The notes beneath the pieces were generated by a model. The model did not search any database and had not been told where the DNA came from. It saw nothing but the letters and a program-made list of their open reading frames with translations. DNA of 60,350 nt from a virus: positions 1 through 60,350 of IMG/VR virus record IMGVR_UViG_3300007735_000768, one strand, 5' to 3'. The translations under genes were made by a program, and so were the position numbers. Positions 47,795-55,739 of this stretch are shown here, in pieces (within the stretch, counting starts at the first letter, position 1; each line of letters opens with the position of its first letter).

Positions 47795-48067
47795 ATGAGT
47801 GAAATTATTTTGGCAAACGGACAAACAGGACTTGACCTCGTTGCATCAATGACGAAAGAAATGCGTGAACATCAAGAGGCAATTGCGCGACTCTCAAAAG
47901 AACGAAAAAAGGTAGTTATAGCACTTCGAACTCAATTTGGTTCAGCAGAGTCAACAGAGCGCGTGACATTTAAAAAAATTGCAGAGGCTATGGGAACGAC
48001 CGATCAAAGCGTCTACAAAATACTTTTCCCACCAACAAAGAAAAAATCCGATTCGATTTCTGAATGA
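47795..48067 (+). CDS. Sigma-like/HTH DNA-binding protein
   Basis: 90 residues. A charged helix (EHQEAIARLSKERKKVVIALR) precedes a helix-turn-helix (TFKKIAEAMGTTDQSVYKIL). Small HTH proteins of this kind are frequent in actinophages. Overlaps the next gene by 4 bases. Target unknown. Confidence 0.68.
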   Translation: MSEIILANGQTGLDLVASMTKEMREHQEAIARLSKERKKVVIALRTQFGSAESTERVTFKKIAEAMGTTDQSVYKILFPPTKKKSDSISE

Positions 48068-49236
48068 CCATGACTTCAAATTTGCAAGGCGAGAATGTTG
48101 ACATCGCCTCGCTAGAATCATTTCCAAATAACCCCCGTATAGGCGATCTCGGGACAATTAAAGAAAGTCTGAGGCGATTGGGTCAGTATCGTCCGATCGT
48201 CGTTCACAAGGCAACACGACGCGTCTTAGCGGGACATCATGTATGGCAAGCGGCAAAAGATTTAGGTTGGGAAACGATCGCAGTTACTTGGGTTGATGGC
48301 GATGAAACATTCTGCAAGAAAGTAGTCCTTGCCGATAATCGAACAGCCGATCTAGGCAGTTATCAAAACGCGGTATTGACAGACCTTCTGCGCTCGCTAC
48401 CCGACTTGATCGCAACAGGTTATGACGCAATTCCAAGAACGCTAGACAAAGAACTTGCATTTACAAAACCTGCACCACGCGAAACAAAACCACGCAAAAA
48501 AGTCATTTGCGGATCATTAAATTACAAAGTTGATCATCTTGCGTGGGAAATATGGCACGATCAAATTTTTGAAGAGTGCGGTGGACAGAAAGTAAAGATT
48601 CCTCGTCAAATAGGAAGTCGACTTGGCATTGAACTCACAACAAAAGCAAAGAATCGCAAACTTAAATTTTCTAACGAAGCAACTATGGCGATTATCGAAA
48701 CACAAGAATTGCCAATTGACTCAGTAGAGCCGTTTTATCGAAATGCGCGAGAGGGTGACATAGGCGCAATTTGTGAGAGCCTTTCAACGCTAGGACAATT
48801 CAGACCTATTGTTGTCAATCGTCGAACACGCGAAATACTGGTCGGTAACCATACATGGGCGGCGGCAAAAGCATTGAAATGGAAAACGATCGCAGTAAGT
48901 TGGGTGGATGTAGATGAAGAAACTGCAACTCGTATTGTTCTTGTTGATAATCGTTCAACCGATCTTGCGACCTACGATGAAGCATTGCTTCGTCAAACTA
49001 TGGTCAACATCGACCTTCAAGGAACTGGTTGGGATTTGGAAGAAATGAATGATTTGTTTTCTGGAATGGAAACACGACCAAAAGCGACAAAACGCATCAA
49101 ATTAAAAGTGGGACAATATCTCGTACCAGTCGAGTCAGAGGCATTACTTGAATGGATAGACAAGTTACCCGAAGGTAAAGAAATTGAACATATAGCGAAT
49201 TTACTATTGCTACCTATCTCAGAATTACCAAACTAG
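48064..49236 (+). CDS. Tandem double ParB/sulfiredoxin-like domain protein
   Basis: 390 residues containing the same domain twice. Copy 1 (about 15-110): FPNNPRIGDLGTIKESLRRLGQYRPIVVHKATRRVLAGHHVWQAAKDLGW. Copy 2 (about 220-320): FYRNAREGDIGAICESLSTLGQFRPIVVNRRTREILVGNHTWAAAKALKW, each ending VLxDNR-T/S-DL. Between them is a basic segment with SRLGIELTTKAKNRKLKFS. ParB-like domains bind CTP or cut DNA in other proteins. Directly before the DNA transglycosylase, so it could bind or assist it. Confidence 0.85.
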   Translation: MTMTSNLQGENVDIASLESFPNNPRIGDLGTIKESLRRLGQYRPIVVHKATRRVLAGHHVWQAAKDLGWETIAVTWVDGDETFCKKVVLADNRTADLGSYQNAVLTDLLRSLPDLIATGYDAIPRTLDKELAFTKPAPRETKPRKKVICGSLNYKVDHLAWEIWHDQIFEECGGQKVKIPRQIGSRLGIELTTKAKNRKLKFSNEATMAIIETQELPIDSVEPFYRNAREGDIGAICESLSTLGQFRPIVVNRRTREILVGNHTWAAAKALKWKTIAVSWVDVDEETATRIVLVDNRSTDLATYDEALLRQTMVNIDLQGTGWDLEEMNDLFSGMETRPKATKRIKLKVGQYLVPVESEALLEWIDKLPEGKEIEHIANLLLLPISELPN

Positions 49237-49250
49237 GGTAGGGTTCAACA

Positions 49251-50078
49251 ATGAGAATGACTTTCGCATTAGGCACTTCGCCTACGCACTCAGCGATCAT
49301 CAACGAAATTCAACCAAAAAACATTCTTGTGGCGTTCCCATATGCAAAAGCATTAGACACTCTCACTTACAAACCTGAATATGTCATGACCGACTCAGGC
49401 GCGTTCACAGCATGGAATGTGGGCAAGAAAGTGGACATAGTGGCATATGCGGATTGGGCGTTGTCACAGCAAGCAAAGTTTCCACGCGTCTTGTCAGTTA
49501 ACTTAGATGTGATTCCGGGCGAGAAAGGTCGAACTTCAACTGCCAAAGAACGAATTGACGGCATGAAGCAATCGATCAAAAATGCAGATTACTTACGCGC
49601 TCGCGGTTTGAATGTCATGGAAGTGTTTCATCAAGACGAACCAAAAGAGTTTTTAAATGAGTTAGTTGATCGTTTGCCAAAAGATTCAGTTTTAGGCATC
49701 TCACCTCGTAACGATAAGCATTTGAAAGCCAAAGTCGAGTGGCAAGCCGTTGTCATGCGCTCGCTGATCGAAAAGTGCGGCAAAGAAAACTTGCCTCGAA
49801 CTCATGGATTAGCGGTAACAAGCATTGAAATGTTACGCAATTTTCCCTACTATTCTGGTGATTCATCAACATGGGTTAACCCTTTCCGCTATGGCGGTTA
49901 TGTAGATGAGCGCGGAAGAATTGTGGGAATTGACACGATCATGAGCAAGCGACCTAGCGGTAGCGAGTCAAATGATGCGCTTCATTTCTTTGCAAGGGAA
50001 AGTATCTACAACTTAATTCGTGTAGGCGACGCTATGACTTCATTGTGGAGTAAGCGTGGAATCGACTGGAAGGACTAA
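49251..50078 (+). CDS. dpdA: DpdA-like 7-deazaguanine DNA transglycosylase
   Basis: 275 residues. The TGT-type barrel is visible: VMTDSGAFTAW, SVNLDVIPGEKGR (Asp of the second motif), LNVMEVFHQDEP, VLGISPRND, THGLAVTSIEML and YSGDSSTWVNPFRYG. These are the marks of phage DpdA, related to tRNA-guanine transglycosylase but acting on DNA, where it exchanges guanine for a 7-deazaguanine base. It lacks the long zinc domain of tRNA enzymes. The presence of the full preQ0/preQ1 route next to it supports the role. Confidence 0.88.
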   Translation: MRMTFALGTSPTHSAIINEIQPKNILVAFPYAKALDTLTYKPEYVMTDSGAFTAWNVGKKVDIVAYADWALSQQAKFPRVLSVNLDVIPGEKGRTSTAKERIDGMKQSIKNADYLRARGLNVMEVFHQDEPKEFLNELVDRLPKDSVLGISPRNDKHLKAKVEWQAVVMRSLIEKCGKENLPRTHGLAVTSIEMLRNFPYYSGDSSTWVNPFRYGGYVDERGRIVGIDTIMSKRPSGSESNDALHFFARESIYNLIRVGDAMTSLWSKRGIDWKD

Positions 50079-50079
50079 A

Positions 50080-50760
50080 ATGGCAAAAACACCTGCATTG
50101 GTGATCAAGAATATTCCGATCAACGAAATTGATCCGAATCCTTGGAATCCCAACAAACAAAATGAACGCCAATACCAAGCGGAAATTGAATCTATTGCCG
50201 AAAACGGATTCCTTGCGCCTATTTTGGTTCGCGAAAATGGCGACCGCCACGAAATTATTGATGGTGAACATAGGTGGAAAGCATTGCGTCAGATTGCAGA
50301 AGATGGGGTCGACGCAAAACAAAATGTTCCTGAATTGATCAAAGCGGGAACTATTCCTGCCATTGTGATCGATGTCAACGATATTCAAGCAAAGAAGTTA
50401 ACGATCATCATGAACGAAACTCGCGGTCGTGCCGATCTTGCCGACCTTGGTGCATTACTTCAAGAAATCTCAGTTGACTTAGGCGATGATTTGCTGATCG
50501 GTTTGCCATATACCGATGGACAACTCAAAGAACTAATGGGCATGGCTGACTTTGACTGGGATCAATTTGAAAAAGGCGCATCAGATAAAGAATTTGATAA
50601 TGCAGACGGAGATGGTTTCCGCGTGACCGCACTTCTGAATGAAGAAGATGAGGCGCGTTGGAAGGGTTATCTAGCACAGTTGCGTGGCGACTTGCCTGAT
50701 GAACCAAAAGAACAAGCAGGGGCGTTGATCGCGCACTTGATGAATAAAGCAGGACTATAA
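50080..50760 (+). CDS. ParB-like nuclease-domain protein
   Basis: 226 residues, starting 2 bases after dpdA. INEIDPNPWNPNKQNERQYQAEIESIAENGFLAPILVREN-GDRHEIIDGEHRWKALRQI is a typical ParB N-terminal domain with the GEHR box, then KLTIIMNETRGRAD. Phage ParB-like proteins often sit beside DNA-modifying enzymes. It may target or regulate DpdA, or bind modified DNA (inference). Confidence 0.87.
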   Translation: MAKTPALVIKNIPINEIDPNPWNPNKQNERQYQAEIESIAENGFLAPILVRENGDRHEIIDGEHRWKALRQIAEDGVDAKQNVPELIKAGTIPAIVIDVNDIQAKKLTIIMNETRGRADLADLGALLQEISVDLGDDLLIGLPYTDGQLKELMGMADFDWDQFEKGASDKEFDNADGDGFRVTALLNEEDEARWKGYLAQLRGDLPDEPKEQAGALIAHLMNKAGL

Positions 50761-50804
50761 CCGAGGTATCTAGGAAACCCTCACTATAAAAAACAGGAGA
50801 TAAA

Positions 50805-51233
50805 ATGACACAAACAGATCACTTGACCGTTCTTGGTCAAAGAGTAGAAGGATCACTAACAAAAGATCAGTTGGAATTTTTTCCAGCACCCGAGCATGTT
50901 GATCATGTCAAGTTTGAGACGCGTGAATTCACTTCATTGTGTCCTGTAACCGATCAACCCGATCTTTACACAGTAATAATTGAATACTCACCTAACGGGC
51001 GTTGCGTTGAGTCAAAGTCACTCAAGTTATATCTTGGGCAATGGCGAAACAAAGGCATCTTTGGCGAGGCGATCACAGCACAGATTGCATCTGATTTATT
51101 TGAAGTATTGGACGCGGGTTGGGTTGAAGTTAAGACGATTCAGCAAGCGCGTGGCGGTTTGGTTATGACAGCAGTTGCTTCACGATCAAAGGGTTACAAG
51201 TTGGAAGATGGAGAGTTGGTGCCAAATGCCTAA
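50805..51233 (+). CDS. queF: preQ0 reductase (QueF)
   Basis: 142 residues. EFTSLCPVTDQPDLYTV carries the catalytic Cys and Asp (C-x6-D), and ESKSLKLYLG is the NADPH-binding QueF motif; YSPNGRCVES and a helical IFGEAITAQI complete the tunnelling fold. It reduces 7-cyano-7-deazaguanine (preQ0) to preQ1 with NADPH. The intact NADPH motif argues against the amidino-transferring QueF-like enzymes. This predicts that the DNA base is preQ1 and not preQ0. Confidence 0.92.
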   Translation: MTQTDHLTVLGQRVEGSLTKDQLEFFPAPEHVDHVKFETREFTSLCPVTDQPDLYTVIIEYSPNGRCVESKSLKLYLGQWRNKGIFGEAITAQIASDLFEVLDAGWVEVKTIQQARGGLVMTAVASRSKGYKLEDGELVPNA

Positions 51234-51939
51234 AGCCGCAGTTGTCGCATCAGGCGGCATGGATAGTGCAACACTCGCATGGCATTACTACTCAAAAGGC
51301 TATGACATTCATCTGATCGGTTTTAATTATGGTCAGCGACATGTCAAAGAACTTGATTATCTACAAAAGATCGCGTTTGCAATTGAAGCAGATTTCACGA
51401 TCGTAGACATGGGATTCATGGCAGATTTGCTTCATGGATCATCATTGACAACTGACGGGGGCGAAGTTCCTGATGGGCATTACCGAGAAGAAACAATGAG
51501 AGCAACTGTTGTGCCTAATCGAAATGCGATCATGTTGTCTATTGCAACGGGCATAGCGGTCGCGGAACAATGTGAAGTTGTGGCAACTGGAATCCATTCA
51601 GGCGATCACTACATCTATCCTGATTGCCGTCCGTCATTCTTTGAACCTCTACAAGCCGCGTTTAAGGCTGGAACAGAAGGACATTCATTGCCTGATTTCC
51701 GTCTTGAAGCACCATTTATCGATAAGACAAAAGCAGACATTGCGGCTTATGGAAATGAATTAGGTGTTGATTACACAATTACTTGGTCATGCTACAAGGG
51801 CGGCGAAGAACATTGTGGTCGTTGTGGAACATGCGTTGAACGCATTGAAGCATTTATTGACGCAGGAGTTAAAGACCCAACCGATTATGCAGAGGGCATT
51901 GAATTCGCGCTCGCCGAAATCGAAAAGCGCCGTGTTTAG
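51226..51939 (+). CDS. queC: 7-cyano-7-deazaguanine synthase (QueC)
   Basis: 237 residues from ATG 51226, 8 bases inside queF. VVASGGMDSATLAWH is the PP-loop for ATP, GFNYGQRH follows, ATVVPNRNAIML is the conserved central block, and SCYKGGEEHCGRCGTCVER provides the zinc-binding cysteines. It converts 7-carboxy-7-deazaguanine to preQ0 with ATP and ammonia. Overlaps queD by 8 bases. Confidence 0.95.
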   Translation: MPKAAVVASGGMDSATLAWHYYSKGYDIHLIGFNYGQRHVKELDYLQKIAFAIEADFTIVDMGFMADLLHGSSLTTDGGEVPDGHYREETMRATVVPNRNAIMLSIATGIAVAEQCEVVATGIHSGDHYIYPDCRPSFFEPLQAAFKAGTEGHSLPDFRLEAPFIDKTKADIAAYGNELGVDYTITWSCYKGGEEHCGRCGTCVERIEAFIDAGVKDPTDYAEGIEFALAEIEKRRV

Positions 51940-52375
51940 ATCCACAAAGCGTTATGGTCATGAAGTAGGTTTCAGTTGCGCGTTCCGTCAATGGAAAGCC
52001 GACTCTCATTGCAACCGACTTCATGGCTATGCGCTTGCCTTCACATTCACTTTTGAGGCAACCGAACTTGATCATCGCAATTGGGTAGTTGACTTTGGCG
52101 GTTTGAAAGCATTGAAGAATATGCTGGAAAAAACCTTTGATCATAAAACAGTTGTAGCGGAAGATGATCCTTATTTATTTGAATTACAGAATCTTGATCG
52201 ATTAGGAGTTCTTGATCTTGTTGTGCTTCCTGCAACAGGATGCGAGAAATTCGCGGCACTTGCCTACGAACTTGCAATGGAAGTTTTAAAGCGTGACGGA
52301 TTCTACCCGCGTTGTCGAGTTGTGAAAGTAGAGGTAGCAGAACATGGCGCGAATTCTGCAATTTACATCCCATGA
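51932..52375 (+). CDS. queD: 6-carboxytetrahydropterin synthase-like (QueD), divergent zinc site
   Basis: 147 residues from GTG 51932. FSCAFRQWKADSHCNRLHGYALAFTF aligns with the QueD FxAAHRL...CxxLHGH region: Cys and one His are kept, but the first zinc His is Phe and the last His of HGH is Tyr. FDHKTVVAEDDP and KVEVAEHGANSA keep the Asp-His and Glu. The same HGY and AFRQW forms occur, to my memory, in other phages, so it is a phage branch. It should make 6-carboxytetrahydropterin. Confidence 0.88.
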   Translation: MFRSTKRYGHEVGFSCAFRQWKADSHCNRLHGYALAFTFTFEATELDHRNWVVDFGGLKALKNMLEKTFDHKTVVAEDDPYLFELQNLDRLGVLDLVVLPATGCEKFAALAYELAMEVLKRDGFYPRCRVVKVEVAEHGANSAIYIP

Positions 52376-53091
52376 CAACTGAAACGCCCAACAGAGAGCG
52401 TTGGGTGAATATCAACGAAGTATTTGGACCCACAATCCAAGGCGAAGGTATTCACACAGGGCAACGCGTCGGATTTGTTCGATTAGCAGGGTGCAACCTT
52501 GCATGCTCATGGTGTGATACGCCTTATTCATGGGATTGGGACAGATTTGATCGTAAAGAGGAATCTCATAAAACGCTGATCAGCGAACTTGCTACTCAGA
52601 TAAAAAACATGGGCGTTGATCGCATCATCTTGACTGGTGGTGAACCTATGTTGCAACAAACGGCAATATGGGATTTAAAAGCATCGATCGGTGACATAGA
52701 CATAGACATTGAAACCAATGGAACGATCTTGCCTAACATCAAAACGATCAACGCGGTAGACATGTTCTGCGTTAGCCCGAAACTTGCCCATGGTGGCGAT
52801 TTGCTGGAAGTTCGACGAACCAAAGCACTTGAAGCCTTTTCATACATAGCGGGGGAAGGTCGAGCGATATTCAAGTTTGTTTGCCAATGGGCATCTGACT
52901 TTGATGAAATAGACGAGATCATTACTCAATTCAAAATCCCGCGCAACGCAGTTTGGATTATGCCCGAAGGCGTGACACAACTTGCTCAAATGGAAACAAT
53001 GCACCGACTCGCAGATGAGGCGATCAATAGAGGTTTCAATATCTCACCACGCCTTCATGTGCTTATTTGGAATACGGAACGAGGACGCTAA
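52372..53091 (+). CDS. queE: 7-carboxy-7-deazaguanine synthase (QueE, radical SAM)
   Basis: 239 residues; ATG overlaps the queD stop. GPTIQGEGIHTGQRVGFVRLAGCNLACSWCDTPYSW has the CX3CX2C cluster motif and the QueE-specific start, and ILTGGEPMLQQ the GGE motif for S-adenosylmethionine. It contracts the pterin ring to 7-carboxy-7-deazaguanine. Confidence 0.95.
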   Translation: MTTETPNRERWVNINEVFGPTIQGEGIHTGQRVGFVRLAGCNLACSWCDTPYSWDWDRFDRKEESHKTLISELATQIKNMGVDRIILTGGEPMLQQTAIWDLKASIGDIDIDIETNGTILPNIKTINAVDMFCVSPKLAHGGDLLEVRRTKALEAFSYIAGEGRAIFKFVCQWASDFDEIDEIITQFKIPRNAVWIMPEGVTQLAQMETMHRLADEAINRGFNISPRLHVLIWNTERGR

Positions 53092-53649
53092 ATGGCAGTA
53101 GATGTTGAAAAGATTGAGGCTCTCACGCGTGAGTTGCTCATTGCAATAGGTGAAGACCCCGATCGTGAAGGCATAATCGATACTCCTAAACGCTACGCAA
53201 AATGGTGGAAAGAGTTTATGGATTATGACGCGGGAAAGGTTGAAACAGCGTTTGAGATTCAAAATAGTGATCAAATGGTTGCTGTTAGAGGCATGAAGGT
53301 ATGGTCGCTTTGTGAACATCATCTATTGCCGTTTAGTGCAACAGTCAGCATTGGATATATTCCAAATGATCGTGTTCTAGGACTTTCTAAGTTTGCTCGC
53401 GTCGCTCATGAACAAGCACACAAATTGCAACTTCAAGAACGCCTTGTGACAGACATTGCCGATCGTTTAAGCATGATCATGAACACCGAGAACATTGCGG
53501 TCGTTGCAGACGGCTCGCACTCTTGTATGACCATGAGAGGGGTTAGAACAGAGGGAAGTATGAGAACATCAGTTATGCGTGGTGTGTTTAGAGATGAACA
53601 TGAAACACGCGCTGAGTTCCTTAACCTTGTTTCTAATTCAGGAAACTAA
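53092..53649 (+). CDS. folE: GTP cyclohydrolase I (FolE)
   Basis: 185 residues, starting directly after the queE stop. EDPDREGIIDTPKRYAKWWKEFM, SLCEHHLLPFSATVSIGYIPND, GLSKFARVAHEQAHKLQLQERL and HSCMTMRGV are the standard FolE blocks, including the zinc Cys/His residues. It makes dihydroneopterin triphosphate from GTP, the first step of the deazaguanine route, so the phage need not use host GTP cyclohydrolase. Confidence 0.96.
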   Translation: MAVDVEKIEALTRELLIAIGEDPDREGIIDTPKRYAKWWKEFMDYDAGKVETAFEIQNSDQMVAVRGMKVWSLCEHHLLPFSATVSIGYIPNDRVLGLSKFARVAHEQAHKLQLQERLVTDIADRLSMIMNTENIAVVADGSHSCMTMRGVRTEGSMRTSVMRGVFRDEHETRAEFLNLVSNSGN

Positions 53650-53668: not shown

Positions 53669-54169
53669 ATGGCAAAGCGCACAGGACGCAAAGTAACCCC
53701 TGCAACAGATGTAAGGGTTGAGCGTCTGATCGAGGCATTGAAGGCTGGAAACTACCTTGAACATGCTTGCGATTACGCTGGGATCGGGAAATCAACTGTC
53801 TATCGATGGCTTGACAGAGGGCAACAGGAAGCAGAAAACATCGAACAAGGGTTGAAACCCGATCGCCATGAGAAGCAGTATGTAGAGTTATGGGACGCTA
53901 TAAAAAGGGCAAGGAGTGAGGCAACTGTCCGAAATGTTGCGTTAATTCAACAAGCGGCACGAAATGGAACATGGCAAGCGGCGGCATGGTGGCTTGAAAG
54001 AACCGCGCCTCAGCAATATGGGCGATCAGTTAGAGCAGAGGTTACGGGCGAGAATGGTGAACCTATCAAGGTGTCCGTTACAGTCAATGCTCTAGAAGCA
54101 AAGATCGCGGCGTTGATTGGAGAAATTGATGAGTCAAGCGATTCAGAAATTATTGACGCTACCGAGTGA
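53669..54169 (+). CDS. terS: Terminase small subunit
   Basis: 166 residues. AGNYLEHACDYAGIGKSTVYRWLDRGQ is the DNA-binding helix-turn-helix; LWDAIKRARSEATVRNVALIQQAARNGTWQAAAWWLERT matches the central helices of phage TerS. It selects phage DNA for packaging. TerL starts within its last 41 bases. Confidence 0.9.
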   Translation: MAKRTGRKVTPATDVRVERLIEALKAGNYLEHACDYAGIGKSTVYRWLDRGQQEAENIEQGLKPDRHEKQYVELWDAIKRARSEATVRNVALIQQAARNGTWQAAAWWLERTAPQQYGRSVRAEVTGENGEPIKVSVTVNALEAKIAALIGEIDESSDSEIIDATE

Positions 54170-55739
54170 TCAACGAACCGAAATCCTCAAACGCCTCTCA
54201 TTTGAGGAACGAGAGTTATTAAGCACTTTCATTGAGGAAAAGCACAATAACCCTTACTCAAAGTATGAAGATGACCCGATCGGATTTGTCAACATTGCAT
54301 TAGGCGAAACTCTATGGTCAAAACAAAAAGAAATCCTTTTATCGCTTAAAGAGAATAAACGAACTGTTGTTCCTGCATGCCACGCCCCCGGAAAATCCCA
54401 TATAGCCGCCCGAGCGATCGCATGGTGGGTTGCTGTCCACCCTGTTGGCACAGCGCAAGTTGTCACGACCGCTACGACCTTTAGACAAGTTCGAAACATC
54501 TTATGGCCTCATATCCGCAAAGTCGCTCGCAAATTAGACCTTAAAGGCGAAGTCAACACAGTTGAGTGGAAGATCAATGGGGAAATGGTTGCCTATGGAT
54601 TCTCTGCATCAGATAACGATGAAACAGCAATTCAGGGTGTTCACGCACCACACTTGTTGATCGTTGTTGACGAGGCTGGTGGCATCTCGCCTATTTTGGG
54701 CGCGGCAATGGAATCACTTATGACTGGTGGTCATACTCGTTTGCTCATCTTAGGAAACCCGCCTACCGATCAAGAAGGATCATGGTTCGAGCGCACTTGT
54801 TCATCTGATTTATACAATGTCATTCCAATTGGCGCATATGACACACCAAACTTTACAGGCGAGGACGCTGGTTCATGTAAGTCATGTCCTGCAAATGTGC
54901 CACCGCATGCCGTTGCCACTCACCTTGTTGATCAAACATGGGTAGACGATGTGATCAAGGAGTTTGGTGAGGAATCTGCATTTGTTGAAGCGCGTGTCCA
55001 TGCTCGGTTCCCGTCTGTTGTTGCAAACAAAGTCATTCCGCTTTCATGGATTGAGGCGGCTGGTGAAAATGAGTTGCCTGAACAAGGTGCAATTCGAATA
55101 GGCGTGGATGTTGCGGCAGATGGCGGTGATGAGTTTGTTATTGCATGGGCTGATGGCATGCGTTGTTCGGTTCGTCATAAGTCAAGTGGCAAGTCAAATG
55201 CTAACGCCGTCGATGTTGCAGGAGTCATTCTTGAACAAATACTGGAAGCAGAACGCGTTCACAAGAGTAGGCAGATAAGTGATCAGGTTCGCGTCAAGAT
55301 CGATGCCATTGGTGTCGGTTGGGGCGTTGCGTCAGTTCTTAAAACATGGGGATTGGAACAAAGGCACAATTCAAAAATAGTTGCCGTGAATGTTGCAGAA
55401 CGCGCTCGCGATCATAACCGCATGTCTAACCAACGCGCCGAAATGTGGTGGAACGCTCGCCAATTGCTACAACCAAAACCTGACGGCACACAAGATGTTC
55501 GACTTGACATTGATCACCGCGCAAATGCACAACTTACAGGACCGACATATTCGAGCGATTCATCAGGACGCATTAAGATCGAGTCAAAGGCTGAAATGAA
55601 ACGACGCGGAATCCCGTCACCTGACCGCGCAGAAGCCGTTTTGCTATCACTCTACGATCCCCCTGGGTCGATGTCGCCCGATATTGCTATGCCTGTTTCG
55701 TTCAAACAAGGCAACGATTGGGATTTGGGCAAATTCTAA
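54129..55739 (+). CDS. terL: Terminase large subunit
   Basis: 536 residues from ATG 54129 behind GGAGAAATTG. CHAPGKSHIAARAIAW is the Walker A region, LLIVVDEAGGIS Walker B, LILGNPPT the coupling motif, and GVDVAADGGDEFVIAW begins the RNase H-like nuclease, with GVGWGVASVL and RAEMWW later. It cuts and pumps DNA into the portal. Its downstream flank is the repeat array at 55.74 kb. Confidence 0.96.
   Translation: MSQAIQKLLTLPSDQRTEILKRLSFEERELLSTFIEEKHNNPYSKYEDDPIGFVNIALGETLWSKQKEILLSLKENKRTVVPACHAPGKSHIAARAIAWWVAVHPVGTAQVVTTATTFRQVRNILWPHIRKVARKLDLKGEVNTVEWKINGEMVAYGFSASDNDETAIQGVHAPHLLIVVDEAGGISPILGAAMESLMTGGHTRLLILGNPPTDQEGSWFERTCSSDLYNVIPIGAYDTPNFTGEDAGSCKSCPANVPPHAVATHLVDQTWVDDVIKEFGEESAFVEARVHARFPSVVANKVIPLSWIEAAGENELPEQGAIRIGVDVAADGGDEFVIAWADGMRCSVRHKSSGKSNANAVDVAGVILEQILEAERVHKSRQISDQVRVKIDAIGVGWGVASVLKTWGLEQRHNSKIVAVNVAERARDHNRMSNQRAEMWWNARQLLQPKPDGTQDVRLDIDHRANAQLTGPTYSSDSSGRIKIESKAEMKRRGIPSPDRAEAVLLSLYDPPGSMSPDIAMPVSFKQGNDWDLGKF

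What the first reader, a model, noticed from the sequence alone, without database searches (positions are those of the whole stretch)
48064..53649. Complete preQ1 pathway next to a DpdA-like enzyme: predicted 7-deazaguanine (dPreQ1) phage DNA
Seen: FolE, QueD, QueE, QueC and QueF motifs in consecutive overlapping genes, with a DpdA-like transglycosylase just upstream. Known: FolE-QueD-QueE-QueC make preQ0, QueF reduces it to preQ1, and DpdA enzymes insert such bases into DNA; the known examples include phage 9g (dG+), CAjan (dPreQ0) and HVTV-1 (dPreQ1). Inference: because QueF keeps both its catalytic Cys/Asp and the NADPH motif ESKSLKLYL, this phage should carry dPreQ1 and so resist host restriction. 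A preQ1-type system in a probable actinophage would be notable.
Basis: partly seen in the sequence, partly recalled or inferred. Interest (0 to 1): 0.85.

Follow-up and report, generated by a model that had tools for sequence, protein, structure and literature searches.

The report
Phage operon for 7-deazaguanine DNA modification
This uncultured phage, probably of an actinobacterium, carries a complete and actively conserved gene set for replacing some guanines in its DNA with a modified base (most likely preQ1), a known anti-restriction trick that already has an isolated look-alike, Arthrobacter phage Mufasa8.

Summary
Window 49251-53649 holds DpdA, ParB, QueF, QueC, QueD, QueE and FolE in tight tandem, just before the terminase genes. 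DpdA has a TGT-like predicted fold and keeps the two aspartates shared with experimentally studied phage DpdAs (CAjan, Dp-1). QueF scores above the preQ1-synthase cut-off and has the published QueF residues. All genes are under purifying selection (dN/dS 0.05-0.13). Modification of the phage DNA with dPreQ1 is the best reading.

It is not new in an actinophage. Isolated Arthrobacter phage Mufasa8 has the same seven genes in the same order, and Mycobacterium phages Knocker and Rinkes carry the same functions. DpdA with QueF is common in viral contigs.

One caveat for the dPreQ1 call: the residue before the substrate-binding Glu of QueF is Gly, whereas QueF of Dp-1 and of HCTV-5 has His there.

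Relatives show turnover at this locus: full cassette; DpdA-YhhQ-QueF-QueC only; DpdA-YhhQ only; and, in a near-full-length relative without DpdA, QueC or FolE, a conserved QueF-derived protein that has lost the catalytic Cys and NADPH motif.

Verdict: new member of a known kind.

The parts
48064..49236 (+). Two-domain ParB-like protein (390 aa); long-term resident of the locus, role unknown
   Evidence: Pfam ParB_N 1.8e-11, phrog_8071 5.8e-84; in most terminase relatives
49251..50078 (+). DpdA, predicted DNA guanine transglycosylase (275 aa); Asp48 and Asp204 conserved
   Evidence: phrog_887 1e-30; AF2 model matches QTRT1; alignment with CAjan and Dp-1 DpdA
50080..50760 (+). Second ParB-like protein (226 aa), directly downstream of DpdA in its subtype
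   Evidence: Pfam ParB_N 1.1e-12; neighbourhoods; 46% to Mufasa8 gp91
50805..51233 (+). QueF, preQ0 reductase (142 aa); Gly in place of His before the substrate Glu
   Evidence: TIGR03139 107.1 bits over cut-off 86.9; residues
51226..51939 (+). QueC, preQ0 synthase
   Evidence: Pfam QueC 2.7e-61; TIGR00364 over cut-off
51932..52375 (+). QueD-type 6-carboxytetrahydropterin synthase, variant zinc site (HGY)
   Evidence: phrog_2389 1.1e-42; Pfam PTPS 5.2e-18; sequence
52372..53091 (+). [quoted passage not shown]
   Evidence: phrog_2076 1.1e-58; Pfam Radical_SAM 1.7e-11
53092..53649 (+). FolE, GTP cyclohydrolase I
   Evidence: Pfam 1e-56; TIGR00063 over cut-off
53669..54169 (+). Terminase small subunit, downstream boundary of the cassette
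   Evidence: phrog_4102 1.5e-34
54129..55739 (+). Terminase large subunit, 54% to Arthrobacter phages

Best explanation
The segment is a phage DNA-modification cassette. FolE, QueD, QueE and QueC make preQ0 from GTP (established pathway; here inferred from homology). QueF reduces preQ0 to preQ1 with NADPH (inferred). DpdA, a shortened TGT-fold enzyme with two conserved aspartates, swaps selected guanines in the phage DNA for preQ1 (inferred from studied phage DpdAs). The dPreQ1-bearing genome is then poorly cut by host restriction enzymes (inferred from published phages). The ParB-like neighbours are long-term residents of this locus and are not needed to explain the chemistry.
For: Family matches for every step. 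QueF over the preQ1-synthase cut-off, 107.1 against 86.9 bits, with Cys, Asp, the ESKSLKLYL motif and Glu88 in the published QueF positions (criteria in PMC5372742). DpdA model pLDDT 79.6, pTM 0.80; best PDB match is QTRT1 of tRNA-guanine transglycosylase, E 9.5e-6, TM 0.65. Asp48 and Asp204 invariant with CAjan DpdA, whose deletion removes the modification, and with DpdA of Dp-1, whose DNA holds dPreQ1 (PMC6884629). Same gene order in Mufasa8. dN/dS 0.05-0.13 for all cassette genes against the 59.4-kb relative L100. QueF near DpdA in 83 of 113 DpdA loci (a redundant set chosen by similarity to this DpdA).
Against: No chemistry is shown. QueF has Gly where Dp-1 and HCTV-5 have His. QueD is a variant with HGY in place of HGH and Phe in place of the first His; it scores 41.7 bits against the QueD cut-off of 89.25, although 33 of 84 DpdA-linked QueDs have HGY. 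DpdA lacks the CxCxxC zinc motif of tRNA TGT, as do all 113 DpdAs here.
Confidence: 0.75

Rival explanations
1. The cassette modifies DNA, but the main base is not dPreQ1. The Gly-variant QueF is inactive, slow or leaky, so DpdA inserts preQ0, or a partly reduced product ends up in DNA.
For: Gly replaces His before the substrate Glu in the whole window clade; Cys in Mufasa8, Knocker and Rinkes; Met, Gln, Tyr or Ile in other phages. The QueFs of Dp-1 (dPreQ1 measured) and HCTV-5 have His.
Against: The position is not one of the published QueF-defining residues. The substitution is stable within a clade under purifying selection (QueF dN/dS 0.07-0.09), and QueF stays next to DpdA.
Confidence: 0.14
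2. The TGT-like enzyme acts on host or phage tRNA rather than on DNA.
For: PHROG and record annotations call the family queuine tRNA-ribosyltransferase; the best PDB fold match is a tRNA TGT subunit.
Against: The TGT Pfam model does not match here but rings in all 14 control genomes, while phrog_887 rings in none of them; zinc motif absent; relatives CAjan and Dp-1 have modified DNA.
Confidence: 0.05
3. The cassette is a decaying passenger without present function.
For: Close relatives have lost parts of it: L105 lacks QueD, QueE and FolE, and L101 lacks DpdA, QueC and FolE.
Against: All genes are intact in the window and in L100 and L002, with dN/dS 0.05-0.13.
Confidence: 0.03

Closest known systems
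Arthrobacter phage Mufasa8 (NC_049478), isolated phage
   Same: DpdA-ParB-QueF-QueC-QueD-QueE-FolE in identical order; DpdA 47.5%, ParB 46%, QueF 44% identity.
   Different: HGH-type QueD; Cys rather than Gly before the QueF Glu; no terminase directly after FolE; no two-domain ParB annotated directly upstream of DpdA. Its DNA chemistry is not reported in anything read here.
Mycobacterium phages Knocker and Rinkes
   Same: ParB, QueF, DpdA, QueC, QueD, QueE, FolE upstream of terminase.
   Different: QueF precedes DpdA; DpdA is only distantly similar; an adenylate kinase gene lies before terminase.
Streptococcus phage Dp-1 (dPreQ1 measured)
   Same: QueF, QueC, QueD, QueE, FolE and a DpdA with the same two Asp (PMC6884629).
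   Different: DpdA about 24% identical and encoded last; QueF has His before the Glu; carries a QueT transporter; no ParB.
Escherichia phage CAjan (dPreQ0 measured; dpdA deletion unmodified)
   Same: DpdA family, 25% identity over 203 residues, and preQ0 pathway.
   Different: No QueF annotated; CAjan DNA carries dPreQ0.
Halovirus HVTV-1 (dPreQ1 measured)
   Same: preQ0 pathway with a QueF-like protein; its relative HCTV-5 was read here.
   Different: Archaeal virus; no DpdA was recognised in it in PMC6884629.

Membership tests
Unimodular QueF (preQ0 reductase) | Catalytic Cys, Asp, substrate Glu and E(S/L)K(S/A)hK(L/Y)(Y/F/W) motif present together (criteria of PMC5372742) | tested here: met
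   FTSLCPVTDQPD, VESKSLKLYL, IFGEA
Unimodular QueF (preQ0 reductase) | Score above NCBIfam TIGR03139 preQ(1) synthase cut-off | tested here: met
   107.1 against 86.9 bits
Unimodular QueF (preQ0 reductase) | His immediately before the substrate Glu, as in Dp-1 and HCTV-5 QueF (not part of the published definition) | tested here: not met
   Gly in window and clade
Unimodular QueF (preQ0 reductase) | NADPH-dependent reduction of preQ0 to preQ1 | not testable with these tools
   needs enzyme assay
Phage DpdA | Sequence relationship to experimentally studied phage DpdA | tested here: met
   phrog_887 1e-30; CAjan 25% over 203 aa, E 2e-16
Phage DpdA | TGT-like fold | tested here: met
   AF2 pLDDT 79.6; QTRT1 top PDB match, E 9.5e-6, TM 0.65; other barrel folds score lower
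Phage DpdA | Two conserved aspartates (DSGAF and DSS positions) | tested here: met
   Asp48 and Asp204 invariant in 8 diverse DpdAs
Phage DpdA | Exchange of guanine in DNA | not testable with these tools
   needs LC-MS or in vitro assay
tRNA-type TGT | TGT Pfam model and CxCxxC zinc motif | tested here: not met
   no PF01702 match; motif absent
preQ0 pathway (FolE, QueD, QueE, QueC) | FolE and QueC above curated cut-offs | tested here: met
   TIGR00063 186.2 against 181.6; TIGR00364 182.2 against 150.3
preQ0 pathway (FolE, QueD, QueE, QueC) | QueE: CX3CX2C radical-SAM motif and QueE family match | tested here: met
   CNLACSWC in the translation; phrog_2076 1.1e-58; below the clade-specific NCBIfam QueE cut-offs
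preQ0 pathway (FolE, QueD, QueE, QueC) | QueD: canonical three-His zinc site and QueD cut-off | tested here: not met
   FSCAF...LHGY instead of FSAAH...LHGH; 41.7 against 89.25 bits. Phage QueD family phrog_2389 matches at 1.1e-42

The most novel reading that the evidence does not exclude
The Gly-variant QueF of this phage clade has altered nitrile-reductase chemistry, so that these phages carry a 7-deazaguanine other than dPreQ1, for example one from a released imine (7-formyl type). A QueF-derived protein that has lost the catalytic Cys and NADPH motif but kept the substrate Glu persists under purifying selection in sister phages without DpdA, which suggests that this QueF lineage does evolve new roles.
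Probability: 0.06. Interest if true: 0.7.

Novelty: new member of a known kind. Interest (0 to 1): 0.38.

Why it matters
It adds a metagenomic lineage, probably of actinophages, to the 7-deazaguanine-DNA phages, and points to an isolated phage (Mufasa8) on which the predicted dPreQ1 can be measured directly. The close relatives form a natural series, from complete synthesis through transporter-assisted forms to loss with a retained QueF derivative lacking catalytic residues, which makes gain and loss of a base modification traceable at one locus.

Tried and rejected
Nucleotide search of the phage collection found no near relative. Phmmer of DpdA against PDB sequences found nothing, so the fold was predicted instead. 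Idea: ParB proteins are partners that guide DpdA. Weakened: a ParB sits next to the terminase in most relatives found by terminase, without DpdA, and both ParBs persist in L101 and L102, which have no DpdA (whole L101 contig). Idea: the aberrant QueD means a broken pathway. Rejected as specific to this phage: the HGY type occurs in 33 of 84 DpdA-linked QueDs. Idea: a phage-encoded YhhQ next to DpdA is new. Rejected: phage YhhQ homologues, and DpdA-only viruses relying on uptake or on the host, are already discussed in PMC6884629 and PMC8651126, and CAjan has a putative preQ0 transporter. A search for QueE in four records gave nothing but had no positive control and is not relied on alone. Two papers on newer phage 7-deazaguanines were not held, so later discoveries could not be checked.

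Full report
What is there. The window is one viral contig record of 60,350 bases, GC about 44%, no tRNA gene, with portal, head, tape-measure and endolysin genes. From 48064 on, all on the + strand and tightly packed: a two-domain ParB-like gene, DpdA, a second ParB-like gene, QueF, QueC, QueD, QueE, FolE, then terminase small and large subunits.

The biosynthetic genes. FolE, QueC and QueF exceed curated NCBIfam cut-offs. QueE has the CX3CX2C radical-SAM motif and matches the phage QueE family at 1e-58. QueD matches the phage QueD family at 1e-42 but is a variant: FSCAF and HGY replace the canonical FSAAH and HGH. That variant is common: 33 of 84 QueDs found near DpdA have HGY, so it is a phage subtype, not a defect of this genome. 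QueF meets the published criteria (Cys, Asp, Glu, QueF motif; PMC5372742) and the preQ1-synthase model. The residue before the Glu is Gly throughout the window clade, Cys in Mufasa8 and the mycobacteriophages, His in Dp-1 and HCTV-5, and Met or others elsewhere. Whether this changes the product is unknown.

DpdA. The 275-residue protein has no Pfam or NCBIfam match but matches phrog_887 at 1e-30. Its AF2 model (pLDDT 79.6, pTM 0.80, eight-sequence alignment) matches QTRT1, the catalytic subunit of tRNA-guanine transglycosylase, best among PDB chains (E 9.5e-6, TM 0.65). Alignment with Mufasa8, Cellulophaga phiSM, Dp-1, CAjan and others leaves Asp48 and Asp204 invariant. CAjan without dpdA has no modification, and Dp-1 DNA contains dPreQ1 (PMC6884629). 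The tRNA-TGT zinc motif is absent here and in all DpdAs examined.

Selection. Against the 59.4-kb relative L100, dN/dS is 0.06 for DpdA, 0.07 QueF, 0.13 QueC, 0.07 QueD, 0.06 QueE, 0.05 FolE, similar to TerL at 0.07. The cassette is maintained.

How ordinary it is. Arthrobacter phage Mufasa8 has the same seven genes in the same order. Mycobacterium phages Knocker and Rinkes carry the same functions. In 113 loci with a DpdA (IMG/VR, phage records, genomes; redundant and selected by similarity), QueF is near DpdA in 83, QueC and FolE in 97 each. So DpdA with QueF is a common arrangement and is already present in actinophages.

Host. The terminase is 54% identical to Arthrobacter phages Waltz, Shrooms, Ottawa, Laroye and others, the two-domain ParB is closest to Arthrobacter phages, and DpdA to Mufasa8. 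An actinobacterial host is likely but not shown.

The locus in relatives. Eighty loci with similar terminases were read. L100 and L002 have the full cassette. L105 (same contig as L003 and L022) has ParB, DpdA, ParB, a YhhQ/Vut_1 transporter, QueF and QueC, but no QueD, QueE or FolE. L101 to L104 have no DpdA, QueC or FolE where sequence is available (L101 is a near-full-length 59.6-kb contig, checked). They keep a QueF-derived protein in which the catalytic Cys is Asn or Ser and ESKSLKLYL has become DGDSLSNYL or ESDSLHNYL. It still matches Pfam QueF at 1e-8, keeps the substrate Glu, and its pairwise dN/dS is about 0.07-0.2. Many other terminase relatives have a ParB before the terminase and none of these genes. 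In Arthrobacter phages Ottawa and Laroye the same slot holds ParBs with a TET/JBP-like oxygenase (below the Pfam cut-off) and a P-loop nucleotide kinase, or with a PAPS-reductase-like protein and an annotated methyltransferase. The slot therefore seems to host different DNA-modification genes in different phages.

Relatives by DpdA. L023 (42-kb contig) has DpdA, ParB and YhhQ but no QueC or FolE, a candidate salvage form. L005 to L008, and L033, have one or two GNAT acetyltransferases directly after DpdA, which could acylate the amine of preQ1. These are leads, not tested.

Judgement. Shown: gene content, order, conserved active-site residues, purifying selection, recurrence; the fold is predicted. 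Inferred: enzyme activities, insertion into DNA, dPreQ1 as the product, protection from restriction. The finding is a new member of a known kind, with an open question about the QueF variant.

Noticed in passing
L101:8121-8495, L102:6484-6858, L103:67-438, L104 about 370-741: QueF-derived protein without the catalytic Cys and NADPH motif, kept under purifying selection in phages lacking DpdA, QueC and FolE: a possible repurposed QueF.
   Followed up: partly
L023:4827-7044 and L033:8277-10783; also L093 and L180: DpdA beside a YhhQ/Vut_1 queuosine-precursor transporter with no preQ0 synthesis genes in the available sequence: candidate salvage-based DNA modification. Phage YhhQ as such is already reported.
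   Followed up: partly
L105:3967-8518: DpdA, YhhQ, QueF and QueC without QueD, QueE or FolE near them; raises the question whether the transporter brings in a substrate of QueC. The 32-kb contig is incomplete.
   Followed up: partly
L005:3799-4736, L006:8762-9696, L007:8762-9696, L008:672-1112, L033:9783-10184: One or two GNAT acetyltransferase genes directly after DpdA; possible N-acylation of dPreQ1, for which no paper was found in the library searched.
   Followed up: partly
L019:226-6106 (Laroye) and L020:1469-6404 (Ottawa); window slot 48064-53649: The ParB-to-terminase slot of related Arthrobacter phages holds other DNA-modification genes: TET/JBP-like oxygenase with P-loop kinase, or PAPS-reductase-like protein with annotated methyltransferase.
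   Followed up: partly
window 48064-49236 and 50080-50760: Two ParB-like genes flank DpdA; the second lies downstream of DpdA in nearly all loci of this DpdA subtype, yet both persist in L101 and L102 without DpdA. Function unknown.
   Followed up: partly
L004:9493-10134 and Pseudanabaena phage Pan1 (L014:5065-5715): A CxxCxxCC (YkgJ-type) cysteine-cluster protein inside two otherwise different DpdA-QueF cassettes.
   Followed up: no
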